From an uncultured Eubacteriales bacterium (GTDB lineage Bacteria > Bacillota > Clostridia > Lachnospirales > Lachnospiraceae), in contig OMVU01000012.1 in assembly GCA_900314565.1 (NCBI GenBank), positions 87,383 to 149,861 of the forward strand: DNA of 62,479 bases, in the 5' to 3' direction. Both the position numbers and the translations under genes were made by a program. Positions 13,867 to 53,441 of the stretch are shown here, one piece after another. Numbering within the stretch: position 1 is the first letter of the stretch; each line of letters starts with the position of its first letter. The notes beneath the pieces are model-generated. The model had not been told where the DNA came from, did not search any database, and was given only the letters and a program-made list of their open reading frames with translations.

Positions 13867-14045
13867 CAAGAACGCCTTGGCGTTCTTGCCGCGCCGCGCG
13901 AGGTGCGAAGCACCTTCCTAATTGCGCGGCTGCGATCCGCCGGAGGCTTTAATCTCTGACGCGGGTTTGTATCCCATCAGAGAAAAGTTTCATTTTGCGC
14001 ATTCATCTCATGATTGAAATCACGAGAATTCTGCGTCAGAGATTA
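13867..14045 (+). repeat. PE2 structured element, copy A (full)
   Basis: Order: AAGAACGCC/GGCGTTCTT hairpin; CCGCGC...GCGCGG stem enclosing GGTGCgaaGCACC; 'tgcgatccgccggaggctt'; then the switch module 13950-14045. Module arms: left CTCTGA at 13954-13959, internal TCAGAG at 13977-13982, right TCAGAG at 14036-14041. All three differ from other copies (CTTCATC/GATGAAG) but remain mutually complementary. A small TGATT/AATCA hairpin lies between the internal and right arms. It sits after crh, just before the convergent terminator. Confidence 0.85.
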
Positions 14046-14095
14046 AAAAGAGAGATAAAGGGACGCCTTTTATGGGGTCCCTTTATCTCTCTTTT
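14046..14095. terminator. Bidirectional terminator between crh and GNAT gene
   Basis: A perfect 18-bp stem, AAAAGAGAGATAAAGGGA with TCCCTTTATCTCTCTTTT, and a 14-nt loop. A-tract on one side and T-tract on the other make it work for both converging transcripts. The GNAT stop codon lies inside it. Confidence 0.92.
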
Positions 14096-14883
14096 AAGTC
14101 CTTTACGCGGAACCAGCAGGTGTAGAACTTTCGGAAGCCGAGCGAACGATAAAGCCTTTTTGCCGGAAGATTGTCTGTTACACACTGCAGATAGGCTTTC
14201 TCAGCCCCGCAGAGTTTCCCGCGCGCGAGGAGGGTCGTACAGATCAGACGGGCAAGCCCCATCCGGCGCAGATCTTCACGCACGTGAATTGCGTATATTC
14301 CTATATAATTGCGGTCCAGAATGCCGAGCCCGGTCCCGGCGATCCTGCCGTCTGCATCCGTGACCGAGACCGCGATCTCGTCCATGGGGATCGCATCATA
14401 CATGGATGGGACGATCCTCAGATGGACAGGGTCTTTTGTGTGCTTCAGAGTGAAGAGACCGTTGACCCAGTCTCTGCTGACTCTGTCTTCGACGCGCAGC
14501 GTAAGACCGTGCTCCGAGAGAGCCGACGATCCGGACTCCGCATCCTCCATCCGGGCAGTGCCGGGCATAAGAAGATCGGCGGTCATATTGTCGACCGTGT
14601 GCTCGATCCGGTAACCCCGCTCCTCAAGGATCCCGTCCAGGGCCGGATCGCAGATGGGGCTGATCTTGAAAATGCAGGGCGTTTTCCATCTGTCATAGAT
14701 GCGTTCGCAGTATTCGATCTTCTCCGTGAGCGGAAGGAGCGAGATCCCGACTGTTTCGGCGCAGTTGGTCCTGTGCGTGTAAAAGTAGGAGAAGCGAAGG
14801 ATCCAGCCGTCGTACATCTGCATCTGGTGGGATGGCCAGGCGTTCAGCGATAAATCTTCGATTTTTTTAATATCAGTGTCCAT
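14083..14883 (-). CDS. GNAT-family N-acetyltransferase
   Basis: 266 residues from the ATG preceded by GGAGG; the ORF stays open further upstream but without a ribosome site. The C-terminal ~130 residues are a GNAT domain: the acetyl-CoA-binding motif reads 'HVREDLRRMGLARLI' (the R/QxxGxG/A signature) and 'DNLPAKRLYRSLGFRKFY' is the typical end of the fold. The N-terminal half resembles a degenerate second GNAT domain ('MYDGWILRFS...RTNC'), as in similar Firmicutes acetyltransferases. Substrate unknown. Confidence 0.85.
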   Translation of the reverse strand: MDTDIKKIEDLSLNAWPSHQMQMYDGWILRFSYFYTHRTNCAETVGISLLPLTEKIEYCERIYDRWKTPCIFKISPICDPALDGILEERGYRIEHTVDNMTADLLMPGTARMEDAESGSSALSEHGLTLRVEDRVSRDWVNGLFTLKHTKDPVHLRIVPSMYDAIPMDEIAVSVTDADGRIAGTGLGILDRNYIGIYAIHVREDLRRMGLARLICTTLLARGKLCGAEKAYLQCVTDNLPAKRLYRSLGFRKFYTCWFRVKDLKER

Positions 14884-14940
14884 GGGGACCTCCGTATCGA
14901 TGTCTGCGCTAAGAGCGGAGCCCTGTGCACAGTTAAAGAC

Positions 14941-14969
14941 ATTATAAAAGTACAAAAGCTTTCCGTAAA
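14941..14969 (-). promoter_or_regulatory. Promoter of the GNAT gene
   Basis: On the minus strand TTTACG, 17 bp, TATAAT, about 60 bp before the start codon. The -35 box overlaps the left arm of the plus-strand hairpin at 14967-15024. Confidence 0.65.
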
Positions 14970-15024
14970 GCGCCAATTACCGGAATTCCGGGGCTGTATG
15001 GCGGTGAAGCCGGCGCTTTTTTTG
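14967..15024 (+). terminator. Terminator-like hairpin upstream of the SipW-like gene
   Basis: AAAGCGCC pairs with GGCGCTTT, followed by a run of seven T; a 42-nt interior contains 'ccggaattccgg'. No plus-strand gene ends nearby, so it may end a short RNA or be a leader structure. It overlaps the divergent GNAT promoter. Confidence 0.55.
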
Positions 15025-15062
15025 TCCCCCGTGCGGTCGCGCGGGCGAGACTCGAAAAAGTG

Positions 15063-15091
15063 TGTACAGATCCGGGTAAAAATGATAAAAT
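15063..15091 (+). promoter_or_regulatory. Promoter of the SipW-like gene
   Basis: TGTACA, 17 bp, TAAAAT, ending 37 bp before the start codon at 15129. Confidence 0.55.
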
Positions 15092-15128
15092 AACAAAGGC
15101 TATCTCTAAAAATGAGGAGGGATACATT

Positions 15129-16508
15129 ATGTCTAAGTTCCTTAAATTCCTGGTCAATATCATTTTGGTCCTGGCGATCCTGGTCACGGGAGCGATTTTT
15201 CTGCCCCCGATGCTCGGGGTCAATACGACTGTAGTCGATTCCGAGACGATGGATACGAATCTTCCGATCGGGTCGATCACATACTCGAAAACTGTGAATG
15301 TCCTCGATCTGCAGAGCGGGAACGAGGTCCTGAAAGAAGTCGGTTCATCGGTACATGCCTACATCATTGAGTCGGGCGATGTCAATACCGGAAAATATAC
15401 GGTCCGTGACGCGATCGCAAAAACATCCGGGACAACGGAGATCAGTCTTCGGAATAATGTCTCGAAAGTCGTCCTGACGGTCCCGTATCTGGGCTATATC
15501 GTGATGATCATGCAGACGACCGAAGGCATGATCATAGCAATCCTGCTCGTGATCTTCGTGATCATCCTGTTCGTTCTCTCCGAACTCTGGAAGCACAATG
15601 AAGAGGAAGACGAAGCGGACGAGGAGGATATCGTGGATGACGACGGGGAGCAGGTAGAGGAGATCCTTGATGACGACGAAGCGCGGGAAGCGCTCGAGAT
15701 GGCCGGGATCGTCCGGTACAGTGCTGCGGAAGCGTCCGAATCGTCCGAAAACACCGCCGAAGACGGATCCGGCAAGGTGGGGGGCGATACAAAGGAAGTC
15801 AAGATCGCGGAAGCACCCGATACAGGCGTGGAGGTGAGACGCGGCGACACAGCATTCCTTGTGAATGAGCTTGCCTCGATCGGAAATGAGAAAGATGTGA
15901 AGGGATCCCCGGATGATTCGGAAGCTGCTCTTTCCGAGGAACTGTCGGGAGAAAAAGGAAGTTTTTCAGCGGAAGCTGCGCTGACGGAAACTGCGCGCGA
16001 TGTGGAAGAGCCTGAGACTGTCGGGGAAGGACCGTTCGCGGCGGAAGACGCTGCAGCAGCCGGGGCTGCTGAGGCGGAAGCCGGGATCGACTTCGTGAAG
16101 GCTGAGATGAAAGACAGAGCGGAAGATGCGGCAGACAGCGTGGAAGTCCTCCGGGAAGGCACGGCAGCTCCTGCGGACGGGACTCCGGAAGGCGGATTCG
16201 ACTGGACGAAGTTCGAAGTCGGTTCACCGCAGGATGAGGCGGCTGCCGTGAAGACAGAAGCTGTGACGGACGCACCGAAGGCGGACGAAGCGGAGACAGG
16301 GTATGTGAAAGCTGCTGCGGCAAAGGTCGGAGAAGAGGCTCAGAAGCCGGCTCCCGGGAAGCCTGCCAGAAGGTTCCGCCCGGTCGAGAGGCTTACTCTT
16401 GAAGAGATCCTCGAGCATGCCAAAAAGAGCGGCGCGGCCGAGGAGACCCAGGCGAGCAGGGATTCGGTAACGGGAGTTGATTTTGTCGATTACAGCGAGC
16501 TGCTCTGA
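15129..16508 (+). CDS. Degenerate SipW-type signal-peptidase-like membrane protein with acidic tail
   Basis: 459 residues from the ATG after AGGAGGG. An N-terminal membrane segment (~6-27) is followed by a ~100-residue extracytoplasmic domain and a second membrane segment (~128-152), the plan of SipW/ER-type signal peptidase I (S26B). 'VDSETMDTNLPIGS' aligns with the catalytic VxSGSMxPxxxxGD region, with Thr40 where the nucleophile Ser should be. 'TVPYLGYI' matches the PxxGY end of the domain. The rest (~155-459) is a cytoplasmic, Glu/Ala-rich, probably disordered tail ending in a conserved-looking basic/hydrophobic patch (RPVERLTLEEILEHAKKS). Probably not an active peptidase; the role is unknown. 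Confidence 0.65.
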   Translation: MSKFLKFLVNIILVLAILVTGAIFLPPMLGVNTTVVDSETMDTNLPIGSITYSKTVNVLDLQSGNEVLKEVGSSVHAYIIESGDVNTGKYTVRDAIAKTSGTTEISLRNNVSKVVLTVPYLGYIVMIMQTTEGMIIAILLVIFVIILFVLSELWKHNEEEDEADEEDIVDDDGEQVEEILDDDEAREALEMAGIVRYSAAEASESSENTAEDGSGKVGGDTKEVKIAEAPDTGVEVRRGDTAFLVNELASIGNEKDVKGSPDDSEAALSEELSGEKGSFSAEAALTETARDVEEPETVGEGPFAAEDAAAAGAAEAEAGIDFVKAEMKDRAEDAADSVEVLREGTAAPADGTPEGGFDWTKFEVGSPQDEAAAVKTEAVTDAPKADEAETGYVKAAAAKVGEEAQKPAPGKPARRFRPVERLTLEEILEHAKKSGAAEETQASRDSVTGVDFVDYSELL

Positions 16509-16600
16509 TCTGCCTCCGACGAAGATGTCCGCACTCCTGACGAAGCGTAGGAGGCGGCAGTAAGGAAATCCTGAGCAAAAAACAAATTTATAAAAAATAA

Positions 16601-16630
16601 AAAAACCCCTTGCATTCGCAGGGGGTTTTT
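16601..16630 (+). terminator. Terminator of the SipW-like gene
   Basis: AAAAACCCC / GGGGTTTTT symmetrical hairpin with loop 'ttgcattcgcag'. The T-run is followed immediately by the rpsJ operon -10 box. Confidence 0.85.
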
Positions 16631-16638
16631 AATATAAT
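16610..16638 (+). promoter_or_regulatory. Promoter of the S10 ribosomal operon, overlapping the preceding terminator
   Basis: A perfect -10 box TATAAT (16633-16638) lies 17 bp after TTGCAT (16610-16615), which is the loop of the upstream terminator. The resulting leader is ~225 nt before rpsJ. The leader contains a CGTGCG/CGCACG hairpin at about 16773-16809 and, next to the start, AAAAAGT (16840-16846) facing ACTTTTT (16861-16867), which would enclose the AGGAGG. Confidence 0.7.
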
Positions 16639-16839
16639 GGCAAATGCTGTGACATGATAGCTATGAAGCGTGAAGTTGCTGCACATGCGTTGCAGGTTCT
16701 CCGTGGAGCGAATGTCATGTAAGGATACTGGCGACAAGTCACTGTGCAATTTAGCCTGTCTCAATAGACGGAGCATCGTGCGGAGTTCTAATAAAAAAGA
16801 AACGCACGGAGATGTGTACAGTCACCGCTTGTCGTACTC

Positions 16840-16867
16840 AAAAAGTGCGAAAAGGAGGCGACTTTTT
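16840..16867 (+). promoter_or_regulatory. Hairpin enclosing the rpsJ ribosome binding site
   Basis: AAAAAGT / ACTTTTT stem of 7 bp with AGGAGG (16853-16858) in the loop, followed directly by T and the ATG. It could modulate rpsJ translation, or act as a weak U-rich attenuator. The stem is A/U-rich and therefore weak. Confidence 0.45.
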
Positions 16868-16869
16868 TT

Positions 16870-17187
16870 ATGGCAAGTCAGGTAATGAGAATCACTCTCA
16901 AGGCGTACGATCACACACTCGTGGATGCATCGGCTGCAAAAATCATTGATACTGTAAAGAGGAGCGGAGCAACAGTCAGCGGACCGGTCCCGCTTCCGAC
17001 AAAGAAGGAAGTTATCACGATCCTTCGCGCGGTACATAAGTACAAGGATTCCCGTGAGCAGTTCGAGCAGAGGACGCACAAGAGACTGATCGATATCGTT
17101 TCTCCGACCCAGAAGGTCGTGGATGCGCTGTCCCATCTTGAGATGCCGGCAGGTGTTTACATCGATATCAAGATGAAAACAAAGTGA
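16870..17187 (+). CDS. rpsJ: 30S ribosomal protein S10 (NusE)
   Basis: 105 residues, standard length. The sequence '[20 protein letters not shown]' and the '[10 protein letters not shown]' loop are typical. S10 sits in the 30S head and, as NusE, joins antitermination complexes with NusB. It is the first gene of the supercluster that runs to secY, with rplC 54 bp downstream. Confidence 0.98.
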
Positions 17188-17241
17188 GTATCAAATTAGT
17201 ATGATTGCCGAATACGGTAATCCGCTGTAAGGAGGTAACAA

Positions 17242-17877
17242 ATGAGCAAACAAATTCTTGCAAAGAAGGTCGGTATGACACAGATCTTCTCAGATAACGG
17301 AGTACTGACTCCCGTAACTGTCCTTCAGGCCGGACCGTGCTATGTAACACAGGTCAAGACGGTCGAGAAGGAGGGCTACAGCGCTGTTCAGGTCGGCTTC
17401 GAGGATATCCGCGAGAAGCTGGTCTCCAAGGGCGAGCAGGGCGTAACGGCCAAGGCAGGCCTTACACCGAAGCGCTTCATCAGAGAGTTCAAGGTAGAGA
17501 ACACTGATGACTACAAGCCGGGTCAGGAAATCAAAGCAGATGTATTCGCAGCCGGCGATCACATTGATGTTACGGCTGTTTCAAAGGGCAAAGGTTTCCA
17601 GGGCACGATCAAGCGTCTGGGACAGCACAGAGGCCCGATGAAGCATGGCTCCAAGTTCCATCGCCATGCTGGTTCCAACGGTACATCCTCGGATCCGAGC
17701 AGGGTTTACAAGGGAAAAGGAATGCCCGGTCAGATGGGCAACAAGCGTGTAACGATCCAGAATCTTGAGATCGTCCGCGTAGATGCCGAGAATAATCTGA
17801 TCCTCGTAAAGGGCGCTGTTCCCGGACCGAAGAAGGGCCTTGTAAACGTCAAAGCAACTGTAAAGAATAAGAAGTAA
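17242..17877 (+). CDS. rplC: 50S ribosomal protein L3
   Basis: 211 residues. It binds near the 3' end of 23S rRNA and starts 50S assembly. The extended loop that approaches the peptidyl-transferase centre contains '[13 protein letters not shown]', including the Gln methylated by PrmB in other bacteria. Start after TAAGGAGG; rplD follows after 23 bp. Confidence 0.98.
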
Positions 17878-17900
17878 CACGGATAGGAGGACGATTCGAG

Positions 17901-18521
17901 ATGGCTAACGTATCAGTTTACAATATGGATGGCCAGGAAGTCGGTAAGATGGATGTAGCGGATTCCGTATTTGCTGCAGACGTCAAGGAAAACCTGGTGC
18001 ATCTTGCTGTTGTACAGCATCTGGCTGCTCTTCGTCAGGGCACGCAGAAAGCCAAAACACGCGGAGAGGTTTCCGGAGGCGGAAGAAAGCCCTGGAGACA
18101 GAAGGGAACCGGTCATGCAAGACAGGGTTCAACGAGAGCTCCGCAGTGGACACACGGCGGCGTAGTATTTGCCCCGGTTCCGAGAAGCTATAAGATCAAG
18201 ATGAACAGCAAGGAGAAGAAGGCGGCGATCAGATCCGCACTCACATCCAAGCTTCAGTCGGGCGACATGATCGTTGTTGACAAGATCGCGTTCGACGGCA
18301 TCAAGACAAAGAACATGGTCAAGGTCCTCGGAAATCTGAAGGCAGATAAGGCCTATGTCGTAATTAACGGAAATGATCAGAATGTCGTTCTTTCCGCAAG
18401 GAACATCCCGACGATGAAGCTTGCTTCCTCGGGAACGCTCAGCGTATACGACATTGTAAAGTATAAGAAACTGGTCCTTACACAGGATGCAGTCAAGACG
18501 ATCGAGGAGGTGTTTGCATAA
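17901..18521 (+). CDS. rplD: 50S ribosomal protein L4
   Basis: 206 residues. The arginine/glycine-rich loop '[18 protein letters not shown]' reaches the exit-tunnel constriction, where macrolide-resistance changes occur in other species; here the usual residues are present. In E. coli L4 also represses the S10 operon; no such mechanism is shown here. It overlaps rplW by one base (TAATG). Confidence 0.98.
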
Positions 18522-18820
18522 TGGCAGATCTTAAATATTATGACATCATTCTTGAGCCGGTCGTCACTGAGAAGAGCATGAACGCCATGGCCGATAAGAA
18601 GTATACATTCTACGTACATGTGGATGCTACAAAGGCTCAGATCAAAGAAGCGGTCGAGAAAATGTTCGAAGGAACAAAGGTTGCTCGTGTCAACACGATG
18701 AACCTTGAAGGCAAGACAAGAAGACGCGGTCTTACATTCGGAAAGACAGCGAAGAGAAAGAAAGCGATCGTCTTCCTCACAGAGGACAGCAAGGACATCG
18801 AGATCTTCTCAGGCCTTTAA
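18521..18820 (+). CDS. rplW: 50S ribosomal protein L23
   Basis: 99 residues with the typical 'PVVTEKS' and '[19 protein letters not shown]' segments. It surrounds the tunnel exit and is the docking site for trigger factor and SRP. One-base overlap with rplD; an 85-bp gap, with a GGCGGC...GCCGCC hairpin at its beginning, separates it from rplB. Confidence 0.97.
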
Positions 18821-18905
18821 AGAATAAGGCGGCATGAGCCGCCTGATGAGACTGACCTAAACTATACGTCCGTATGAGACGTGATGAACAAAAGGAGATA
18901 GAAGA

Positions 18906-19754
18906 ATGGCTATTAAAACATATAAGCCGTATACACCGTCCAGAAGACATATGACGGGCTCTGATTTCTCTGAGATCACAAAGAAGACTCCTGAGAAATC
19001 CCTTACAGTCAGCCTGAAGAAGACTTCCGGCCGTAATAACCAGGGCAAGATCACAAGCCGTCATCGCGGCGGCGGAGCAAGACGCAGATACAGACTTATC
19101 GATTTCAAGCGCAACGGCAAGGATGGTATCCCGGCAGTTGTCAAGGCAATCGAATATGATCCGAACAGAACAGCCAACATCGCACTGATCTGCTATGCAG
19201 ACGGCGAGAAGGCTTACATCCTCGCACCGCAGGGCCTCACGGTCGGTACAACGATCGAGAACGGCGCTGAGGCTGAAGTAAAAGTCGGGAACTGCCTCCC
19301 GCTCTCCTGCATTCCGATCGGTACTATGGTACACAACATCGAGATGCATCCGGGCAAGGGCGGACAGATGGTCCGCGCAGCCGGCAACGGCGCGCAGCTC
19401 ATGGCGAAGGAAGGAAAGTACGCTACGCTGCGTCTTCCGTCCGGCGAGATGAGAATGGTCCCGATCGAGTGCCGCGCGACAGTCGGTGTCGTCGGCAATG
19501 GCGAGCACAACCTGATCAATATCGGCAAAGCAGGCCGTAAGAGACATATGGGAATCCGTCCGCATGTACGCGGTAGTGTCATGAACCCGAACGATCATCC
19601 GCATGGCGGCGGCGAGGGCAGATCTCCGGTAGGACGTCCGGGCCCGAGCACACCGTGGGGCAAGCCGGCTCTCGGTTACAAGACAAGAAAGCATCATAAG
19701 CAGTCTGATAAGCTGATCGTAAGAAGAAGAAACGGTAAGGGTTCAGGAAGATAA
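18906..19754 (+). CDS. rplB: 50S ribosomal protein L2
   Basis: 282 residues. Required for subunit association and peptidyl transfer. The conserved '[19 protein letters not shown]' near the C-terminus contains the important histidine; '[18 protein letters not shown]' is the N-terminal signature. Start after AAGGAGATAGAAG, with rpsS 14 bp downstream. Confidence 0.98.
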
Positions 19755-19768
19755 TTAGGAGGTAGAAT

Positions 19769-20044: not shown

Positions 20045-20078
20045 GGCTGCCGGGAATTAGATCGAAAGGAGAATATTC

Positions 20079-20468: not shown

Positions 20469-20479
20469 GGAGGGTCATT

Positions 20480-29249: not shown

Positions 29250-29390
29250 AAGAACGCTTCACGTTCTTGCCGCGCCGCGCAGGGTGCGAAGCACCTTCTT
29301 CTTTGCGCGGCTGCGATCCGCCGGAGGCTTTTATTCTTCATCGCGAGATTGTACTCACGATAAAATCACGAATATTGCGCGATGAAGAAT
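29250..29390 (+). repeat. PE2 structured element, copy B (deleted switch)
   Basis: Starts with the AAGAACG/CGTTCTT hairpin, then CCGCGC...GCGCGG enclosing GGTGCgaaGCACC, then ATTCTTCATCGCG...CGCGATGAAGAAT. The segment that carries the internal GATGAAG arm is deleted, so only the long pairing remains. It is inserted between infA and rpmJ in the alpha operon. Confidence 0.85.
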
Positions 29391-29408
29391 AAAATAATTC
29401 TTGCAATC

Positions 29409-33235: not shown

Positions 33236-33320
33236 AGGCGGGATTGTACTCACGATGAAGGCGAGTTCACTTTGCGCACGTATCTCACGATTAAAATCAC
33301 GAGTATTGCGCGATGAAGAA
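33236..33320 (+). repeat. PE2 switch module, copy C (left arm lost)
   Basis: Matches 'attgtactcacgatgaaggc', 'actttgcgc', 'gtatctcacga' and 'tattgcgcgatgaagaa' of other copies. The left CTTCATCGCG arm is replaced by 'gagaggcggg', so only internal and right arms remain. The small hairpin between them is CGATtaaaATCaCG. Confidence 0.75.
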
Positions 33321-33338
33321 AAAAATGACATAAAAAGT

Positions 33339-36088: not shown

Positions 36089-36163
36089 CGGGGTGTGGCT
36101 CAGCTTGGCTAGAGCGCCTGGTTTGGGACCAGGAAGCCGCAGGTTCGAATCCTGTCACCCCGA
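36089..36163 (+). tRNA. tRNA-Pro (TGG)
   Basis: Acceptor CGGGGTG/CACCCCG, anticodon loop TTTGGGA with anticodon TGG, T-loop GGTTCGAAT. CCA is not encoded. First of six. Confidence 0.97.
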
Positions 36164-36188
36164 CTTCCATAATATATGCTTTTTCTAT

Positions 36189-36259
36189 GCGGGTGTAGTT
36201 CAATGGTAGAACACCAGCCTTCCAAGCTGGACACGTGGGTTCGATTCCCATCACCCGCT
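36189..36259 (+). tRNA. tRNA-Gly (TCC)
   Basis: Acceptor GCGGGTG/CACCCGC, anticodon stem CCAGC/GCTGG with loop CTTCCAA (anticodon TCC), T-loop GGTTCGATT. CCA not encoded. Confidence 0.97.
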
Positions 36260-36290
36260 TTTGTCTCTTTATTGAGGCTTCAGCAGCTAT

Positions 36291-36364
36291 GTGCCTGTAG
36301 CTCAGCTGGATAGAGCAACGGCCTTCTAAGCCGTGTGTCGGGAGTTCGAGTCTCTTCAGGCACG
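36291..36364 (+). tRNA. tRNA-Arg (TCT)
   Basis: Acceptor GTGCCTG/CAGGCAC, anticodon stem ACGGC/GCCGT with loop CTTCTAA (anticodon TCT). Confidence 0.96.
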
Positions 36365-36369
36365 TATAT

Positions 36370-36444
<75 letters not shown>

Positions 36445-36482
36445 CTCAGCAGCTGGTGGCTGCGTTCCCGAAAGGTGATTAT

Positions 36483-36555
36483 TGGGCTATCGCCAAGGGG
36501 TAAGGCACAGCACTTTGACTGCTGCATTTCGTTGGTTCGAATCCAACTAGCCCAG
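36483..36555 (+). tRNA. tRNA-Gln (TTG)
   Basis: Acceptor TGGGCTA/TAGCCCA, anticodon stem CAGCA/TGCTG with loop CTTTGAC (anticodon TTG). Confidence 0.97.
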
Positions 36556-36560
36556 TATAT

Positions 36561-36633
36561 GGAGCATTAGCTCAGGTGGTAGAGCACTTGACTTTTAATC
36601 AAGTTGTCCGGGGTTCGAGTCCCCGATGCTTCA
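36561..36633 (+). tRNA. tRNA-Lys (TTT)
   Basis: Acceptor GGAGCAT/ATGCTTC, anticodon stem CTTGA/TCAAG with loop CTTTTAA (anticodon TTT). Last of the cluster. Confidence 0.97.
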
Positions 36634-36645: not shown

Positions 36646-36688
36646 GTCGATTTCCGCATACAAAAACGGAAATCGGCATTTTTTTTCT
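36646..36688 (+). terminator. Terminator of the tRNA cluster
   Basis: CGATTTCCG / CGGAAATCG with an A-rich loop and eight T. The T-run runs straight into PE2 copy D. Confidence 0.93.
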
Positions 36689-36778
36689 TCATCGCGAGAG
36701 TGTACGTACGATGAAGGCAAGGTTTACTTTGCGCGTATCTCACGACATTAGTCGCGAGGAAAAGCGCGTTGAAGAATA
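36685..36778 (+). repeat. PE2 switch module, copy D
   Basis: Left arm TTCTTCATCGCG, internal CGATGAAG (36709-36716), small CGACattaGTCG hairpin, right arm GCGCGTTGAAGAA. It begins in the T-tract of the tRNA terminator. The GC module is absent. Confidence 0.82.
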
Positions 36779-45892: not shown

Positions 45893-45960
45893 TTAGGCAT
45901 TCGAAACGCATGGAAACGCCGATGCTCCGAAGGAACACCGCTTTGCAGGGGGAGATTTGC

Positions 45961-48900
45961 ATGGATCCTGTAAGACAGAGAAAAAAACTTGAGACCTGGC
46001 GCAACGGTCTTCTCGATCTTGGACGCCGCAACCGCATGATGAATTATCGAAGGACCAGGCGGGGCACGCTGCACATTACGACGCCTGATTTTGAGACGCT
46101 GTTTGCGAAGATCGCCGGCAGCACACGGGCTGTCCCTTTCAAGAAGCGGGTCGACGTGAGCCATGACGCCTATCTTACGGGCTTTTTTGCTCTCATGGAC
46201 AGCCTGTCGGCACCTGTAGAGCTCGTGACAGGGGAGATCGGTTCCGATCTGCCGACAGAGGAAATGCAGAGTACGCTCAGGAACCTCCGCCAGAAGGCGA
46301 AGCTGTCCCTGGAGGAGCAGGGTATCAATATTCTCTACCTGAGCTTCGGCTTTCTGGAGTGGAAACAGAAACCGTCGGAGCCGCCGCTTTCCTCGCCGCT
46401 AGTCCTGGTACCCGTCACGATCGAGCGAAAGTCGATCACGAGCGGCTTTTCTCTTCGCAGGCTTGATGAAGATATCGTTGTGAACCCGACGCTCGACTAT
46501 GCTTTAAATACCCTTTTCGGGATCGATCTTCCTGATTTTGACCCCGAGGAGGGAATCCTCGCATATCTTGATCTTGTACAGGAGCTCGTACAGGACAGCG
46601 GCTGGACTGTGCATAAGGAAGCGGATCTGGGACTCCTTTCCTTCCTGAAAATCGTTATGTACAGGGATCTTCTGAAGTATGAGGACAGGATCTTTGAGAA
46701 TCCGGTCATCCGGGCCTTCTGCGGCGATCCGTCCGGCCTGAAGCTGCCGGATGAGGATGCCGGGAATTTTGACCATGACGGGATCTCCTATCTTGAGAAC
46801 TGCCAGGTCGTGAACGCGGACGCAAGTCAGCTGGACGCGATCCGTATGTCCAGACAGGGCGTCAGTTTTGTCCTCATGGGACCTCCCGGCACGGGCAAAA
46901 GCCAGACGATCACCAATATCATTGCCGAGGGACTCGCAGACGGGAAGAAGATTCTTTTTGTGTCCGAGAAAATGGCCGCTCTGAACGTCGTTCTGAACAG
47001 GCTGCGTGAGAGCGGTCTCGGCGATTACTGTCTGCCTCTCCACAGCTGCAAGACGGAGAAGAAGAGCGTAGTGCAGGAGCTTGCGAGAACACTGGATGAG
47101 CCGGTCGTCGCGGCGCCCGCTGAAGATTACCTTTCTATTGAGAGGGCCTTCCGGGAGAGGGAGGAGCTTCGGAAGTATTTTTCTCTGATGCACGGGGAAC
47201 GAAGCCCTCTCGGGCACAGCATCTCGGAGGCAGTCAGCGAGCTCATCCGGCTTGAGGAGGAACCTGCGGTCATTCTTCCGGAATCCGGATCTTACTGCGC
47301 CTTTCGGGGGCAGGATTATGCTCTTCGCATGGAAGCGCTCGTAAAGTATCAGGATTTTTCGCGCAGGACCGGGGAAAATCCGTTCACGAACCCGTGGCGC
47401 GGGACTTCCATAAAGATGGTGACTTATGAGAGGATGCATGAGATCAGGGAGGTGTCAGCAGTACTTCTTAAGACGCTTCCGGCGCTTCGTGAGGAGGGAG
47501 ACGGTACGATCGGCGGGATCCTTTCATTTTCAGAGGGGATCTGCGAGTATGAGGAACTTTATGCCGGCGGCAGGAAATATGTCTCCCCGGTCTTTACGGA
47601 GGAGATGAATGCGGAGCTGGCAGAGCGTGATCTGGCAGGAGTCCGGAATGTGTACCGCGGTGCCGACGGGTGCGGTATTTCCGCGGAGGACATTAAGAGT
47701 CCGGACCGAAGAAAGATGACCTTTGAGGCGCTTGGCGGCGCCTTTCGTCTGGTGCGCGAGATCGGCGGATTTATTGAGCAGACAGCACGGGAGACCGGAC
47801 AGGTGATCCCGTATACGGCAGAGGGAGTGCGCAGGATCGGCGAGCTTGCCGGGGTGCTGTCGATCCCTTACGCGATGCGTGCCGAGTGGTTCGGGGAGGG
47901 CGTGTATGAAAATCTCCTCGGGCTGGTCCGCGTCCGGAAAATGAGGGTCGGGATCGTAAACGGCAGCCGTGAGGATCTTCTGGCGGGATGGAAGGAGGAA
48001 TTTCTCGGATTCGAGACCGGAGAGATCCTCGGGAGGTTCGAGAGGGAGTCCGCATCCTTTTTGAGAAGGCTTGGAGGCAGCTACCGGAGAGACCGGGCTC
48101 TTCTCCTCTCCATGCGGAAGGCCGGCGCGCCGGCTGACGACAGGTCGCTCCTTGCGGGGCTTCGCGCGCTCAATGCCTACCGTGAGGAAATCATCGGGCT
48201 TGTGAGCACCGAGGAACAGTGCGCGGGACTGCTCGGAGGATATTATCTCGGGGAAAATACAGACTGGAATTACGTGGAAGAAGTCCTTTATGCTGCAAGA
48301 CCTGTGCAGGAGTACGCTGCGAAATACGGAATATCGGAGATCCTTGCGTCGGAACTCAGCCTGAAGGGGGAAAGCCGGACGGTCAGGATCGGAGGTTATA
48401 CACCGGAGGAGGTCCTTGCGGGGGAATTCCTCACGCGCTGTGAGCAGTCAGCGGAACGGATCGGGATGCCTCTCACGGAGAAGGCGCAGATCCTTCGCAG
48501 GCAGATCGCGGAAGGCCCGGCTGCGGCGGATAGGGCGGCGGAGGCCGTTTCCCGCATGATGAGGGAGCCGGAGGGGGACCTCGCGAAGATCGAGGAGGCG
48601 CTCCTTGCCTATCTGGAGGAGGAGAAGACTTTCGAGAACCGGAGAAGAGAGCTCCTTGCATATTTCGGCGGTTCATCCGGCATCACGGGGGAGGAGGCCG
48701 CACAGTCAGGAGAGAGAAGTCGCTGTCCGTCAGATGAGGAGATCCTTCAGGCCGGGAAAAGGCTTTCGGAGATCCTCCTTAAGGAAGGATTTTCGGAAAA
48801 TGAAGATCCGTACCGCGTGCTGCAGGCCTTTGCGGGGACTGTCCGGAAATTCTTCGAATGGTTCCCGGAGGATGATCTCGCGGGACTGTCCATCGACGAT

Positions 48901-50673
48901 TTCTGTGAGAAGGTCCGCGGATGCAGCGATATCGAAAAGCTCTACAGCTGGCTGAGCTTTGAGGATACAAGGGAGATGTGCCAAAAGGCCGGCGTATCCG
49001 GGTTCATCGATGCATGTATTGAAAAGGGCATTGAGCCCCTGCATTATGCGGATGTCTTTCAGAAGAGCTTTTATACGAAGTGGCTTTTTGAGCTGCTGTC
49101 CGACGGGGATGCGAAACTGCTTCGAAATTTCAGATCGCATGTCCATGAGGCCCTGATCGACCGGTTCTCGGCGGACGATAAGGATTCGCTCCGCATCGCC
49201 CGGGAGCGTCTCGGTGAGATGCTGACGCGCAGGAAGCCGGAGAGCCGTGCAACGATCAAGAAGGGCAGCGAGATGGGGATCCTTCGGCATGAGGCCAATA
49301 AGAAGAGGAGCATCAAGCCGATCAGAAGGCTTCTCCGGGAGATCCCGAACCTTGTCATGAGCCTGAAGCCCTGCCTGATGATGTCACCGCTCTCGGTCGC
49401 CTATTTTCTGGATCCGGACCAGTATACATTTGATATGGTCATCTTCGATGAGGCTTCGCAGATCCTTCCGGAGGACGCAATCGGCGCGATCTGCCGGGGA
49501 AAACAGGTCATTATCACGGGAGATACCAGACAGATGCCGCCGACGAGCTTCTTTACCACAGCGGTCAGGGGGACTGAGGATCTTGACCGGGACGAGGAGG
49601 AGTTCTATGACGAACCGGTCAGCGAGTCCGTTCTTGATGAGGCCGCCGCATATCTTCCGTCCTGCATGCTCCTGTGGCATTACAGGAGCAGGGATGAGTC
49701 CCTGATCGCATTTTCGAACCGGGAGATCTACGGGAATAAGCTGATCACATTTCCCGGATGCGGCCGGCAGCCTGACCGCGGGATCGAGTATGTGCTGGTG
49801 GAAAACGGCATTTACCGGGACAGGAGCAATGTCGCGGAAGCGGACAGGTGTGTGGAGCTCATCCGGGAGCATATCCTGCTTCATCCGGAGAGATCGCTCG
49901 GAGTGGTGGCATTTTCCGAAAAGCAGCAGAGCGTGATCGAGAATGCGGTCGGACGTTTCAGGCTGCAGCACCCGGAGTATGAGGACTTTTTCGACGAGGA
50001 GCGCGAAGAGCCGTTCTTTGTGAAGAATCTTGAAAATGTTCAGGGAGATGAGCGCGACACGATCCTCTTCAGTATCTGTTACGCAAAGAACGAGCAGGGA
50101 AGAATGTACATGCGGTTCGGGCCGCTCGGTGCAGCCGGCGGGGAGCGCAGGCTGAATGTTGCGATCACGAGAGCCAAGTACAATGTGAAGCTTGTCGGGT
50201 CGATCCTGCCGGAGGATATAGATCTCACGAGGACGCAGGCCGAGGGCGTGCGGATGCTTCGGGACTATATTGCGTTTGCAATGGTCGGAGGCGCGGAACA
50301 CTCTGCCGGGAAAGACAGGGCGGAGGAAGGATGCTTTGAGGATGTGGTCGCGGAGTTCATCCGGCAGCAGGGCTATACGGTGCGGCGGAATGTCGGCGCG
50401 TCCCGATGCAGGGTGGATATTGCCGTCGGGGAGAACGGAGTGAATGATTCGTTTTTCGCGGGGATCGAGTGCGACGGGGACAGTTATACGATGGGACGCA
50501 CAGTCAGGGAGAGAGATGTCCTTAAGAAAGCGATGCTGAGATCCATGGGATGGCGGATGCATCACGTGTGGTCCTTTAACTGGTTCCGGATGCCGGAAGA
50601 GGAGAAGCAGAGGCTTACAGAGTTCCTTAATGAAGCGAGGAAAAGCGCGGAAGGGCAGGGTGAGAGCCAATGA
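45961..50673 (+). CDS. DUF4011-SF1 helicase-Vsr-like nuclease fusion (candidate defence protein)
   Basis: 1570 residues from the ATG preceded by GGGGGAG; the frame extends 17 codons further. The N-terminal ~270 residues match DUF4011 ('LETWRNGLLDLGRRNRMMNYR', in part). The SF1 helicase is split: Walker A GPPGTGKS at 307-314, then ~800 mostly helical residues, then Walker B DEASQ at 1163-1167, 'TGDTRQMPP' (~1183) and 'VQGDERDTI' (1360) with 'ERRLNVAITRAK' (~1394). The C-terminal ~100 residues are a PD-(D/E)xK nuclease of the Vsr/MTES_1575 type: D1486 in 'RVDIAV', 'IECDG' at 1502-1506, 'RERDVLKK' and 'WRMHHVWSFNW'. This architecture is known among antiphage candidates (DUF4011-helicase-Vsr, 'Hhe'). 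The next gene is coupled by ATGA. Confidence 0.85.
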   Translation: MDPVRQRKKLETWRNGLLDLGRRNRMMNYRRTRRGTLHITTPDFETLFAKIAGSTRAVPFKKRVDVSHDAYLTGFFALMDSLSAPVELVTGEIGSDLPTEEMQSTLRNLRQKAKLSLEEQGINILYLSFGFLEWKQKPSEPPLSSPLVLVPVTIERKSITSGFSLRRLDEDIVVNPTLDYALNTLFGIDLPDFDPEEGILAYLDLVQELVQDSGWTVHKEADLGLLSFLKIVMYRDLLKYEDRIFENPVIRAFCGDPSGLKLPDEDAGNFDHDGISYLENCQVVNADASQLDAIRMSRQGVSFVLMGPPGTGKSQTITNIIAEGLADGKKILFVSEKMAALNVVLNRLRESGLGDYCLPLHSCKTEKKSVVQELARTLDEPVVAAPAEDYLSIERAFREREELRKYFSLMHGERSPLGHSISEAVSELIRLEEEPAVILPESGSYCAFRGQDYALRMEALVKYQDFSRRTGENPFTNPWRGTSIKMVTYERMHEIREVSAVLLKTLPALREEGDGTIGGILSFSEGICEYEELYAGGRKYVSPVFTEEMNAELAERDLAGVRNVYRGADGCGISAEDIKSPDRRKMTFEALGGAFRLVREIGGFIEQTARETGQVIPYTAEGVRRIGELAGVLSIPYAMRAEWFGEGVYENLLGLVRVRKMRVGIVNGSREDLLAGWKEEFLGFETGEILGRFERESASFLRRLGGSYRRDRALLLSMRKAGAPADDRSLLAGLRALNAYREEIIGLVSTEEQCAGLLGGYYLGENTDWNYVEEVLYAARPVQEYAAKYGISEILASELSLKGESRTVRIGGYTPEEVLAGEFLTRCEQSAERIGMPLTEKAQILRRQIAEGPAAADRAAEAVSRMMREPEGDLAKIEEALLAYLEEEKTFENRRRELLAYFGGSSGITGEEAAQSGERSRCPSDEEILQAGKRLSEILLKEGFSENEDPYRVLQAFAGTVRKFFEWFPEDDLAGLSIDDFCEKVRGCSDIEKLYSWLSFEDTREMCQKAGVSGFIDACIEKGIEPLHYADVFQKSFYTKWLFELLSDGDAKLLRNFRSHVHEALIDRFSADDKDSLRIARERLGEMLTRRKPESRATIKKGSEMGILRHEANKKRSIKPIRRLLREIPNLVMSLKPCLMMSPLSVAYFLDPDQYTFDMVIFDEASQILPEDAIGAICRGKQVIITGDTRQMPPTSFFTTAVRGTEDLDRDEEEFYDEPVSESVLDEAAAYLPSCMLLWHYRSRDESLIAFSNREIYGNKLITFPGCGRQPDRGIEYVLVENGIYRDRSNVAEADRCVELIREHILLHPERSLGVVAFSEKQQSVIENAVGRFRLQHPEYEDFFDEEREEPFFVKNLENVQGDERDTILFSICYAKNEQGRMYMRFGPLGAAGGERRLNVAITRAKYNVKLVGSILPEDIDLTRTQAEGVRMLRDYIAFAMVGGAEHSAGKDRAEEGCFEDVVAEFIRQQGYTVRRNVGASRCRVDIAVGENGVNDSFFAGIECDGDSYTMGRTVRERDVLKKAMLRSMGWRMHHVWSFNWFRMPEEEKQRLTEFLNEARKSAEGQGESQ

Positions 50674-51122
50674 TCGAGCTTATGAAGAATATGGAGGAAC
50701 CGGAGCAGGCGGAACCGGTCTGCGACCCGGAACAGGCGAAACAGGTCTGCGATCCGGAACAGACGGAACAGGTCTGCGATCCGGAACAGACAATTGCTCT
50801 GGAAGAAACGGAAAGGCTCATGTCAGAGTATGATCCGGAGCAGACAGCGGAGCTGATCGTGGAGGAGGAGCCCGGAAGGTCGGAAGACCTGACAGGCTCC
50901 GGAATCTTTCTTTTTGACGGGATGGAGTTTCGGACCCCTTCAGAGCTGGCCCGCTATTTCCAGAGCTATGCGGATGAATCAAGACGTGCGCTCAGCAGGA
51001 AGGTGCGGCAGCTGTACGCTGATAAGGAGCACCTTCTGCCGGAATTTGAGGCATGGCTCATTGCAATCGGAAAAGAGAAGGAGCTCAATGCCTGGAAAAG
51101 GAAAATACAGGGCATGCGCTAG
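50670..51122 (+). CDS. 150-residue partner protein coupled to the helicase-nuclease
   Basis: 150 residues. Its ATG overlaps the helicase stop (ATGA), so it is translationally coupled. The N-terminal half is acidic and carries three 9-residue repeats (xxxVCDPEQ) at 14-40, encoded by 27-bp DNA repeats, and a fourth DPEQ at 55-58. A conserved-looking C-terminal domain (~78-145) has 'FLFDGMEFRTPSELARYFQ' and 'FEAWLIAIGKEKELNAW', a pattern of small helical modules with a Gly...Leu-Ala...Trp-Leu...Gly-Lys signature. I do not recognise a family. No membrane segment. Probably an accessory or sensor of the helicase. Confidence 0.7.
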   Translation: MIELMKNMEEPEQAEPVCDPEQAKQVCDPEQTEQVCDPEQTIALEETERLMSEYDPEQTAELIVEEEPGRSEDLTGSGIFLFDGMEFRTPSELARYFQSYADESRRALSRKVRQLYADKEHLLPEFEAWLIAIGKEKELNAWKRKIQGMR

Positions 51123-51835
51123 GCCAGAAGGCCGGCGAGCGGGCCAAAGAAATAAGCATCCGCTGTGACAATGACAATGGCTGTCAGCAGAAGGAGCACA
51201 AGCTTTCCGGGGTTCAGCCTGCGGCGGAGCGCTCCGATGACGTCCGTCCGCTCAGTCTTCCCGGAAGGAATTCCCGCAATCTTGCTGAAGTGACAGTAAA
51301 ATGCAAGCGCCGCGAAGACGATCAGGATGATGAGCGCCTCGATGTTGTTGAAGAATACAGCATAGATGATGCCTAAAAAGACCGGGATCACCACACCGCC
51401 GATGCACAGGTATTTGGTCGCAAAGACGACGAGCATGCCGGCGATGTTGGCAAGAAGGCCCCAGAAGGGATCAAAAATGACGAAGGCGATACTGCTCGAG
51501 GCAACGCCCTTTCCGCCCCGGAATTTCATCCAGAAGGGGAAGTCATGGCCGAGCGTCGCACCGAGTCCCGCGTAGAGAAGAGCCATTTTTCCGATGTCCT
51601 CCCCGAAAAGGAGATAGCTTACGACGGAGGCTGCGGCCGTTTTCATAAGGTCGCCGATGAGGACGGTGATGCCCGCTTTGAACCCGAGATTCGCCATCAC
51701 GTTGGCCATACCGGGATTGCCGGACGTTCCGAGCTCCCGGGCGGGTCTTCCGGTGAGTTTTCGCACTACGATCTCCGCGGTCATAAAGCAGCCGAAGAGA
51801 TAGCCGATGAGGAGACAGATGATTCGTTCTTTCAT
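51119..51835 (-). CDS. plsY: PlsY-type glycerol-3-phosphate acyltransferase
   Basis: 238 residues from the ATG with AAAGGAA upstream. Multi-pass membrane enzyme that uses acyl-phosphate to acylate glycerol-3-phosphate. Motif 1 'ELGTSGNPGMANVM', motif 2 'GHDFPFWMKFRGGKGVASS' and 'GDLMKTAAAS' are present; a slight change is GTSGNPG for the common GSGNxGxxN. The stop shares a CTAG palindrome with the convergent partner gene (TAG on both strands). A half PE1 copy lies just upstream. Confidence 0.88.
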   Translation of the reverse strand: MKERIICLLIGYLFGCFMTAEIVVRKLTGRPARELGTSGNPGMANVMANLGFKAGITVLIGDLMKTAAASVVSYLLFGEDIGKMALLYAGLGATLGHDFPFWMKFRGGKGVASSSIAFVIFDPFWGLLANIAGMLVVFATKYLCIGGVVIPVFLGIIYAVFFNNIEALIILIVFAALAFYCHFSKIAGIPSGKTERTDVIGALRRRLNPGKLVLLLLTAIVIVTADAYFFGPLAGLLA

Positions 51836-51865
51836 TAGCAGGTTCCTTTTACTCTCTGACATAGT

Positions 51866-51966
51866 CAGGCAATTGCGACAGTCTGTACTTTATGGAATTT
51901 GTATGAACAGTCAAACGGCTTCCGCGCCAGGAACTTCTGACATTCACGCAAGATGTGGAAAAGCCT
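51866..51966 (-). repeat. PE1 half copy
   Basis: Reads, on the plus strand, as the reverse complement of the right arm of PE1 ('caggcaattgcgaca', 'caaacggcttccgcgcca', 'gaacttctgacattcac', 'agatgtggaaaagc'). The left arm is missing, so no palindrome can form. It lies between plsY and the lysR-type gene. Confidence 0.82.
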
Positions 51967-51977
51967 GCGCGTAGCGG

Positions 51978-52865
51978 TCACGGGAGTCGCTTTTTCCGCT
52001 CTTTATAATACTTCAAAATTGCGTCGACGAACACCGGAATATCCTGATTCAGGTAATCCTTGTTGTAGGCCAGATAGACCTGATGCTGCGGAGCCTTCAC
52101 CGAGAAGGGGTAGGATACGTAGCCTCTGCTGTCCAGGTGATCTGCGATGCATGCCGGCACGATCATCCAGTCGTCGGGATCCTCAAAGTATTTCTCTGCG
52201 GTCGGGGTGATGTTCACCCGGATCTTGGACTGGAAAGGCGGCCACCACTGATTGTGCCATTCGCGGAAGATATCGCAGTAAGATTCATGGATCTCATGGT
52301 GGGCTTTGAGCGCTGAGGGATGGATCCCCTGCTCGTATTCCTCCCGCGCACCTTCTTTTTTAAAGACGACCCTGTATTCTTCCTCGAAGAGCAGCAGAGC
52401 TTCGAGATCAGGATAGGGGGACGGTGCCTGGGTGATGCCGATGTCGATACGCTGGTGCTCCAGCAGAGTATAGATCCCGGTGGACCTGTGATCCTCGAGA
52501 GAGAAGTAGATCTCGGGGTGCTCCTTCCGAAATGCCTTGATGAATTCCGGAAGCGAATAATCCTGCATGCTGTTGATGCTGCTGACCGTCAGGTAGTGAC
52601 GGATATGGTCATCCTGCAGGTGCATGGCCTGGGTGTTCAGGACCAGCATGCGGCGGGCAATATCATAGAAAGCTGCGCCTTCCACGGTGAGGCGGATACG
52701 GTTCCTGCCTTTTCCGCGCTCGAAGAGGCGGATGCCCAGTTCGTTCTCAAGTGTGACGAGCCGTTTGCTGACGGTCGATTCTGTAAGATAATGATTTTTT
52801 GCGGTCGCCGAAAGGCTTCCGGACTCGCGCAGGTCGATAAAAAGTTCCAGGGATCCGATGTCCAT
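51978..52865 (-). CDS. LysR-family transcriptional regulator
   Basis: 295 residues starting MDIGSLELFIDLRESGSLSATAK; the frame continues upstream through the promoter but is not coding. N-terminal HTH (~1-60, 'TESTVSKRLVTLENELGIRLFERG', in part), then an effector-binding periplasmic-binding-like domain (~90-290). Ligand unknown. It is divergent from the 30-residue membrane peptide, so it may regulate that gene. Confidence 0.88.
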   Translation of the reverse strand: MDIGSLELFIDLRESGSLSATAKNHYLTESTVSKRLVTLENELGIRLFERGKGRNRIRLTVEGAAFYDIARRMLVLNTQAMHLQDDHIRHYLTVSSINSMQDYSLPEFIKAFRKEHPEIYFSLEDHRSTGIYTLLEHQRIDIGITQAPSPYPDLEALLLFEEEYRVVFKKEGAREEYEQGIHPSALKAHHEIHESYCDIFREWHNQWWPPFQSKIRVNITPTAEKYFEDPDDWMIVPACIADHLDSRGYVSYPFSVKAPQHQVYLAYNKDYLNQDIPVFVDAILKYYKERKKRLP

Positions 52866-52929
52866 TTTTTGTAAGAGCCCTCCGTAAAGAATAGTCGAAA
52901 ACGGAACATTTAATGAGAAAATTATTCGT

Positions 52930-52958
52930 TTTACATTTATTCTAACATGAGTTATAAA
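52930..52958 (+). promoter_or_regulatory. Promoter of the 30-residue peptide gene
   Basis: TTTACA, 17 bp, TATAAA. Lies in the ~160-bp divergent region with the LysR-type gene. Confidence 0.65.
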
Positions 52959-53027
52959 GAAAATGAAGGGCGGGTGAATATGTGACCCGCATGAACAATC
53001 ACACGGAAAAGACATCGGAGGGAAAAA

Positions 53028-53120
53028 ATGATCGCAGCAGTATGGATGGGACTGATCGCTTGCTTCGGCGCAGTTATGGGAGCAGATATCGCTTACCAGA
53101 TGAAGAAGTACGAGAGATAA
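53028..53120 (+). CDS. 30-residue single-pass membrane peptide
   Basis: Encodes MIAAVWMGLIACFGAVMGAD followed by IAYQMKKYER. Excellent SD (GGAGGG, 5 nt before ATG). One hydrophobic helix (~2-22) with a basic C-terminus, an inside-positive topology. The unit has its own promoter and terminator, so it is a real independent transcript. Too short for family assignment; comparable peptides tune membrane transporters or kinases. Confidence 0.72.
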   Translation: MIAAVWMGLIACFGAVMGADIAYQMKKYER

Positions 53121-53159
53121 AGAAAAATTAAGAGAGAGTATAAGAGAATAGAACCGTAA

Positions 53160-53216
53160 GGTCCCGCAGGATATTTCAATGAGCTGATCATTGCAATATC
53201 CTGTGGGATCTTTTTT
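53160..53216 (+). terminator. Terminator after the 30-residue peptide
   Basis: GGTCCCGCAGGATATT / AATATCCTGTGGGATC, 16 bp with two weak pairs, then six T that merge with the end of PE2 copy E. Confidence 0.92.
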
Positions 53217-53441
53217 ATTCTTCATCGCGCAATACTTTCGACTGCAGTCGTGAGATACGCGCGCAAAGTGAAAATTGCCTTCATCGTGAGTACAATCTCG
53301 CGATGAAGAATAAAAGCCTCAGCTACACAATGCTCCACTGGAGCATTGTTACGCATGCTTAGGCACGGCGGATCGCAGCCGCGCGATTGGGAAAGTGCTT
53401 CGCACCTCGCGCGGCGCGGCAGGAACGCCGAGGCGTTCTTG
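53217..53441 (-). repeat. PE2 structured element, copy E (longest)
   Basis: On the minus strand: AAGAACGCC/GGCGTTCcT hairpin, CCGCGC...GCGCGG stem with GGTGCgaaGCAC, an extra insert with a perfect ACAATGCTCCA/TGGAGCATTGT hairpin (53327-53349), then the switch module with left arm ATTCTTCATCGCG, internal CGATGAAG, CGACTGCAGTCG hairpin and right arm CGCGATGAAGAAT. Abuts the preceding terminator. Confidence 0.87.

What the first reader, a model, noticed from the sequence alone, without database searches (positions are those of the whole stretch)
13950..53441. PE2: dispersed element whose arms covary and allow two exclusive hairpins
In copies D and E a left arm (CTTCATCG) can pair with an internal copy of its complement (CGATGAAG, ~20 nt away) or with the right arm (CGCGATGAAGAA, ~85 nt away). 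In copy A all three have changed together: CTCTGA, TCAGAG, TCAGAG. The small hairpin in between also covaries (CGACTGCAGTCG, CGATTAAAATC, CGACATTAGTCG, TGATTGAAATCA). Coordinated change of three segments points to selection for a two-state structure, as in an attenuator or riboswitch-like RNA, or a cruciform. Copies: 13867-14045, 29250-29390, 33236-33320, 36685-36778, 53217-53441 (minus), relic 2488-2546.
Basis: partly seen in the sequence, partly recalled or inferred. Interest (0 to 1): 0.85.

Follow-up and report, generated by a model that had tools for sequence, protein, structure and literature searches.

The report
Modular mobile hairpin repeats in Lachnospiraceae
A bacterium related to gut Lachnospiraceae carries well over a hundred copies of a small DNA repeat whose three matching arms change together and can fold in two competing ways; it looks like a hitch-hiking mobile element rather than a gene switch.

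Summary
Window copies A-E are tails of a modular, high-copy element: HEAD, optional MID, swappable ~101-nt tail. The tail model finds 147 matches in the genome, a lower bound, and matches 11 of 31 genomes of the genus but 0 of 12 of other genera. In 75 tails from several species, four homologous arm families have L, I and R changed together; L-R has strong, I-R weak, support in pairs the other lacks.

A riboswitch or attenuator is not supported: copies lie in all gene orientations, are present or absent at orthologous sites, and lose pairs at near-neutral rates. Best explanation: a non-autonomous, single-strand-structured mobile repeat, REP/BOX-like, probably of IS200/IS605 (Y1 transposase) type. 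Left ends sit behind strong hairpins in 26 of 170 cases (controls 1-5 of ~170), as do 4 of 5 IS200-type left ends of the genus, and right ends are alike. The enzyme is inferred; two empty sites do not show the expected target, and 48 of 112 elements are HEAD alone.

The parts
13948..14047 (-). Copy A tail, family Y (arms CTCTGACGC)
   Evidence: CM match G000:C138:101330-101429, 95.3 bits
13866..13942 (-). Copy A HEAD module
29328..29394 (-). Copy B tail, family X, internally deleted
   Evidence: CM match G000:C138:116712-116775, 43.4 bits
29245..29323 (-). Copy B HEAD module
33238..33324 (-). Copy C tail, family X, distal arm R lost, no HEAD
   Evidence: CM match G000:C138:120600-120706, 69.2 bits
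36681..36780 (-). Copy D tail, family X, no HEAD
   Evidence: CM match 90.2 bits
53214..53314 (+). Copy E tail, family X, complete
   Evidence: CM match 115.1 bits
53317..53364 (+). Copy E MID module (palindromic insert between tail and HEAD)
53365..53445 (+). Copy E HEAD module ending in hairpin GAACGCCGAGGCGTTC + TTGAA
2473..2545 (+). Relic HEAD module
   Evidence: 75% identity
51097..51132 (.). Site without element where relative G044 (RUG13128) carries Y-MID-HEAD (junctions diverged)
57586..57607 (.). Site without element where G044 carries an X tail plus 3' hairpin; here TTTTAT precedes AAAACAGC, consistent with a TTTAT target, but the flank left of it is diverged
62210..62219 (.). Site without element where G044 carries X-MID-HEAD

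Best explanation
A family of non-autonomous mobile elements that act through a single-stranded, folded form. R can close with I, which frees L to pair at its foot with the core around H, or with L, which closes the whole tail. Shown: dispersal, modularity, covariation in H, L-R, I-R, the L foot and HEAD, element-bearing versus element-free orthologous sites, and a preference of the 5' end for the position directly behind strong hairpins that by eye look like intrinsic terminators. Inferred: the ends are handled as single-stranded DNA by an IS200/IS605-type Y1 transposase acting in trans, with TTTAT-type sequence as the left target and hairpin+YTGA as the right end; the L/I alternation would let the ends be exposed or sealed during excision and insertion. 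My layered odds: mobile structured repeat 0.9; IS200/IS605-type mobilisation 0.5; arm alternation used in transposition 0.25.
For: High copy number and patchy genus-limited spread. Occupied versus element-free orthologous sites. 71 of 75 tail hits begin within 8 positions of the model's 5' end and 90 of 97 HEAD hits reach near the 3' end; some copies join the two ends with the inside deleted (e.g. L049:6033, L058:12880). 0 of 57 tails in the sample lie in predicted genes. Left ends with a hairpin <=-18 kcal/mol in the adjoining 40 nt: 26 of 170, against 1-5 of 169-170 at seven other offsets and 2 of 133 at right ends (Fisher p 1e-4 or less for each). IS200-type elements of the same genus: 4 of 5 left ends behind hairpins of -19.4 to -23.9 in 40 nt, the fifth -7.7; similar layout (target, about 20 nt, hairpin); right end hairpin + TCCTGACT/TCTTGACT against TTCCTGAA/TTCTTGAA here. 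Y1 locus L072 of the own genome carries ATTCTCGTGACTTTAGTCGTGAG, identical to hairpin H in Y tails of relatives; the hairpin pattern with up to 3 mismatches occurs once outside tails in 859 kb. Y1_Tnp in 8 of 9 element-rich and 7 of 14 poor genomes (p=0.09). Copies decay near-neutrally. Folding strand = G-rich strand 39:18, which I take to fit insertion into the lagging-strand template (PMC6006769, passages seen) but which is confounded with gene direction.
Against: G007 (25 copies) has no Y1_Tnp match and G045 (99 copies) only short fragments, one at a contig end; both are drafts. The Y1 association is weak and no better than that of reverse transcriptase: 6 of 9 rich, one below cut-off, vs 4 of 14 poor, p=0.10. 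Empty sites agree only partly with a TTTAT-type target: one X site has TTTTAT|AAAAC, but two Y sites have TTGA(A) at the junction; other pairs were too diverged. 48 of 112 merged elements are HEAD alone and lack the tail's 5' end. Only 15% of left ends have the strong hairpin, mean energies did not differ, and the threshold was set after that. Guide tetranucleotides were not demonstrated. No transposition or transcription data exist.
Confidence: 0.5

Rival explanations
1. Classical MITE of a DDE transposase: L and R are terminal inverted repeats, I a subterminal binding site, and each arm family answers to a different transposase.
For: L-R is a near-perfect 16-17 bp inverted repeat in intact tails and is the pairing with least strand asymmetry; arm families change wholesale.
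Against: No target-site duplication recognised by eye at flanks or empty sites; HEAD, not R, forms the far end of complete elements; I-R, H and HEAD helices also covary; the 5' end prefers to follow hairpins in one orientation.
Confidence: 0.15
2. RNA-borne retroelement inserted downstream of terminators, as class C group II introns do (recalled), copied by a reverse transcriptase in trans.
For: Orientation-specific position behind terminator-like hairpins; no target duplication seen; covariation and G-U preference; 48 of 112 elements are HEAD alone, which 5' truncation would give.
Against: RVT_1 is absent from element-rich G005, G007 and G045; no Rfam intron match in the window; tail-only copies (28 of 112) and copies with both ends but a deleted inside are not what 5' truncation gives.
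Confidence: 0.12
3. The covariation is mutational: tandem-unit slippage homogenises L and I, and template switching inside the quasi-palindrome copies the change into R, without selection on a switch.
For: L and I are starts of tandem units; units are duplicated in some copies; several pairs change on the same branch; single changes keep pairs near the neutral rate; a rearranged orthologue of one copy, partly inverted by eye, is seen in G000:C85.
Against: H and HEAD helices covary too, and arm families keep matching outer pairs that L does not share with I.
Confidence: 0.15
4. Host-useful two-state regulatory RNA (attenuator or riboswitch-like) spread by transposition.
For: Two competing folds, the favoured one differing between family members; copies are intergenic and 44:24 sense over antisense.
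Against: All orientations occupied, presence/absence at orthologous sites, near-neutral decay; the sense bias can be explained by insertion behind terminators. Neighbouring gene functions were not compared.
Confidence: 0.07

Closest known systems
REP/BIME/REPIN sequences and TnpA-REP (RAYT)
   Same: High-copy intergenic palindromes, not conserved between species, thought to move as ssDNA hairpins by a Y1 HUH enzyme (PMC6006769, passages seen; PMC8266576, listing only)
   Different: Larger (about 100-235 nt), several helices, modular HEAD/MID/tail, alternative three-arm pairing; no Y1 gene flanked by the repeats as their source was found among 19 Y1 loci, and no GTAG-type guide was seen by eye
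IS200/IS605 insertion sequences and their non-autonomous derivatives (PATEs, name recalled and used as a search term)
   Same: Hairpin about 20 nt from the left end, hairpin at the right end, no target duplication seen, left end behind T-tract hairpins as in the genus's own IS200-type copies
   Different: No transposase gene; extra I-R hairpin and HEAD stem; cleavage sites and guides unproven; two empty sites lack the expected target
Pneumococcal BOX elements (boxA-boxB-boxC)
   Same: Modular, variable number of an inner unit, predicted RNA fold, other end modules in a related species (PMC3049150, passages seen)
   Different: BOX has inverted repeats and target duplications (PMC3049150, passages); no sequence relation was tested or claimed; here the arms covary in triplets
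Class C group II introns
   Same: Insertion behind terminator hairpins in one orientation (recalled)
   Different: No Rfam intron match in the window; reverse transcriptase not found in three element-rich drafts

Membership tests
IS200/IS605 non-autonomous derivative | Subterminal hairpins at both ends | tested here: met
   H about 20 nt from the 5' end and the terminal GAACGC..GCGTTC hairpin, conserved in the aligned copies
IS200/IS605 non-autonomous derivative | Insertion 3' of a fixed short target with no duplication | tested here: inconclusive
   TTTTAT|AAAAC at one X site; TTGA(A) at two Y sites; no duplication recognised
IS200/IS605 non-autonomous derivative | Y1 transposase available in the host | tested here: inconclusive
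   8 of 9 element-rich genomes, G007 none, G045 fragments only; 7 of 14 poor genomes
IS200/IS605 non-autonomous derivative | Guide tetranucleotide at hairpin foot that interacts with the cleavage site | not tested
   AATA/AATT before H would fit TTAT/TTAA in families X/Y by eye; one evolutionary split only, and other X variants do not fit
REP sequence with RAYT | 21-65 nt hairpin with GT[AG]G at its foot, near a tnpA-REP gene | tested here: not met
   Element is larger; of 19 Y1 loci scanned for tail, HEAD and Z, L270 has copies (an IS sits inside an element) and L072 a weak hairpin-only hit; no GTAG-type foot seen by eye
DDE-transposase MITE | Terminal inverted repeats with target-site duplication | tested here: not met
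   Tail has inverted repeats but whole elements do not; no duplication recognised in flanks or the few empty sites
Riboswitch or attenuator | Fixed position ahead of genes, conserved at orthologous loci | tested here: not met
Any Rfam family | Match at gathering score | tested here: not met
   Window: only the S10-Clostridia leader and six tRNAs; copy E region at E<=10: six matches, none reaching its gathering score
Group II intron | Intron-encoded RT or Rfam group II RNA | tested here: not met
   No Rfam intron match in the window; RVT_1 not found in G005, G007, G045

The most novel reading that the evidence does not exclude
A mobile ssDNA (or RNA) element with an internal conformational switch: R is a built-in guide whose 3' tail (AATAAA, ATTAAA, ATTGAA) complements the family's own target-like 5' end (TTTATT, TTTAAT, TTCAAT). 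While R pairs with I the tail is exposed; when it pairs with L the element end is sealed. Arm families would then be re-programmed target specificities of a hitch-hiking element that shares terminator-tail sites with its host's IS200.
Probability: 0.12. Interest if true: 0.8.

Novelty: new variant of a known kind. Interest (0 to 1): 0.5.

Why it matters
It adds a large, modular, covarying repeat family in uncultured ruminant-gut Lachnospiraceae to the REP/BOX kind. It gives a natural set of compensating arm changes with which the role of alternative folding in small mobile repeats could be tested. It also suggests that an IS200-type transposase and a non-autonomous repeat share insertion sites behind transcription terminators. 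Copies sit at contig ends in draft genomes (for example all nine G007 copies fetched lie within about 60 nt of one), so they probably break assemblies.

Tried and rejected
Rejected: a known RNA family. Carriage by phage or plasmid: no match for copy E in plasmids or phages; no viral contig for the X/Y core pattern. Riboswitch: see rivals. Reverse transcriptase as common factor, though its association with element-rich genomes is as weak as that of Y1.

Weak or failed: the first empty-site try at the rpoA operon was too diverged. A joined-flank search was swamped by the MID palindrome. A mean-energy test of left flanks was not significant (Wilcoxon p=0.09); the hairpin preference shows only in the strong tail of the distribution, and that threshold was chosen. 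G-T over A-C asymmetry is modest without two fixed columns. Literature searches whose listings show no paper on these repeats: (open-licence library only). On a second check I lowered the claim that element ends are always kept, because 48 of 112 elements are HEAD alone, and raised the retroelement rival from 0.10 to 0.12 for that reason.

Selection effects: A2 and A3 tails were chosen for at least 11 of 14 L-R pairs, so percent paired for L-R is inflated; I-R and H were not selected on. For A2, 36 of 75 pool hits passed and 30 were aligned. For A3, 182 of 251 hits passed, 81 were non-redundant, 6 odd ones were dropped, leaving 75. HEAD alignment A4 used 30 of 56 non-redundant copies out of 137. 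Match numbers per genome come from different thresholds and scoring caps (own genome 147 at E<=0.01; relatives at E<=0.001 with 131 or 150 candidates scored). Genomes taken as duplicates from identical or matching places (G043=G033, G045=G035, G046=G017, G048=G018, G049=G005) were not counted twice.
Full report
WHAT IS THERE. The five window copies and the relic are real. The tail (about 101 nt) has arm L, hairpin H, a core (GCGCAAAGTG..), arm I, a short loop and arm R. HEAD ends in a hairpin and TTGAA. In a 20% sample of the genome (window plus 40 stretches, 859 kb) 112 merged elements of the X/Y tail, HEAD or MID were found. HEAD alone 48, tail alone 28 and tail-HEAD 14 are the commonest; tandem tail units also occur. 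A further tail family, Z (CTCAGTGG arms), by eye with the same three-arm plan but no common core, lies next to the same MID and HEAD. A covariance model of 30 tails gives 147 matches at E<=0.01 in the whole genome, with only 150 of 1519 candidates scored, so this is a lower bound.

DISTRIBUTION. The model matches 11 of 31 genomes of the genus, themselves a draw from a larger group (147, 116, 99, 46, 40, 25, 19, 12, 3, 1, 1 matches; own genome at E<=0.01, the others at E<=0.001), and 0 of 12 genomes from other genera of the order. RUG13128, reached through another tool, has 149 with 150 scored. A 22-base X/Y core pattern in 84,980 species genomes gave 48 stretches in 7 MAGs, labelled Lachnospiraceae, Clostridia or Clostridiales; the labels that name a host are goat and sheep ileum, and the RUG isolate names are, from memory, rumen sets; the tool may leave out the window's own genome. 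There was no match in viral contigs, plasmids or phages.

COVARIATION. Four homologous arm families have L and I alike and R complementary: CTTCATCG, CTCTGACG, CTTCAACA, CTTTGACA. On 75 non-redundant tails: L-R plus H 90.5% paired, 157 double-changed cells vs 51.1 in shuffles; I-R plus H 91.3%, 132 vs 43.3; slid partners give 21-54% paired. The outer six L-R pairs, absent from I, are supported alone (28 vs 11.0). The inner I-R pairs, absent from L, are supported weakly (12 vs 4.6, one pair). The foot of L also pairs with core columns 49-52 and covaries: CGCG:CGCG, CGCA:TGCG, CACA:TGTG (93.7% paired). HEAD has 23 predicted pairs, 8 with kept double changes. MID was not tested. On a tree of all columns, both-side changes on one branch number 11 (L-R), 7 (I-R) and 3 (H) against 0-2 for slid controls; on a core-only tree 16, 12 and 3 against 0-2. 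RNA folding picks I-R for two X examples and one V, and L-R for one Y and one W; DNA folding picks I-R for one X example and L-R for the other four. So two exclusive pairings are a property of the family.

NOT MAINTAINED COPY BY COPY. Single substitutions in paired columns keep pairing about as often as the substitution spectrum predicts: L-R 48 kept, 82 broken, 50.0 expected kept; I-R 42 and 46, 36.7 expected; H 43 and 38, 36.6 expected; I-R on terminal branches stands out a little (z=2.07). This fits copies that decay after insertion.

MOBILITY. G044 (RUG13128) carries elements at three places where the window has none (35, 21 and 9 bp gaps in the window's alignment). Two further pairs exist: L204 against L009 (flanks 96-98% identical, but the 3' end of that copy is deleted) and L093 against L236 (86% left, 79% right flank). 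Neither shows a target duplication; both empty sites have TTGA(A) at the junction. In the G044 X site the window reads TTTTAT|AAAACAGC and the filled site TTTTAT|TCTTC..CCTGAA|AAAACGGC, with a diverged left flank. The evidence on the exact target is therefore mixed.

WHERE IT INSERTS. 0 of 57 tails lie in predicted genes. Of 170 distinct left flanks, 26 have a hairpin of -18 kcal/mol or better in the adjoining 40 nt, against 1-5 at seven other offsets; right ends show 2 of 133. By eye many are intrinsic terminators with the element starting in the T-tract. This can explain the sense bias of 44:24 (p=0.02).

LINK TO IS200. Five left ends of an IS200-type element in this genus were found by similarity to L270, where a 158-aa Y1 gene has no long second ORF beside it; four lie directly behind hairpins (-19.4 to -23.9 kcal/mol in 40 nt), the fifth (-7.7) inside the tail arm of an X-HEAD element at TTTTAT. 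Their right ends are hairpin + TCCTGACT or TCTTGACT; the repeats end in hairpin + TTCCTGAA or TTCTTGAA. Y1 locus L072 of the own genome, taken by eye as IS605-type, carries 23 nt identical to hairpin H of Y tails in relatives. Y1_Tnp occurs in 8 of 9 element-rich genomes (one with fragments only) and 7 of 14 poor ones; RVT_1 in 6 of 9 (one below cut-off) and 4 of 14; neither difference is significant. This makes IS200/IS605-type mobilisation the leading mechanism but not a demonstrated one. Background on subterminal hairpins, guide tetranucleotides, lagging-strand insertion and REPs comes from passages of PMC6006769; on BOX modularity from passages of PMC3049150.

VERDICT. The riboswitch/attenuator reading is replaced by a modular mobile repeat, a new variant of the REP/BOX/IS200-derivative kind. 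The use of the arm switch remains open.

Noticed in passing
window 53544-53794: Part of another dispersed repeat of about 250 bp, with copies at roughly 76-96% identity in RUG13128 (G044), G049 and G048 (query 1645-1895).
   Followed up: no
L036:8088-8333, L013, L140:1037 onward: A separate palindromic repeat (starting GATTTTATCGGAAGTTCC, ending GCGGTTCTCA) is inserted in the R arm of X tails, apparently duplicating AATA.
   Followed up: partly
L270:846-1837 (RUG13128): An IS200-type element (tnpA of 158 aa, no long second ORF) sits inside an X-HEAD element at TTTTAT.
   Followed up: partly
L285, L075, L076, L276: IS200-type elements of the genus lie directly behind terminator-like hairpins in 4 of 5 cases seen; this may be a general insertion preference.
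   Followed up: partly
L096 (G018), L230 (G003), L238 (G038): The same terminator carries a Y tail in one species, a W tail in another and what looks like a W remnant in a third.
   Followed up: no
L010, L011, L012, L016, L022, L027 and sample loci: Tail family Z (CTCAGTGG arms) with, by eye, the same three-arm plan but an unrelated core, next to the same MID and HEAD.
   Followed up: partly
window 16655-16737 and 36089-36633: S10-Clostridia ribosomal leader and a cluster of six tRNA genes.
   Followed up: no
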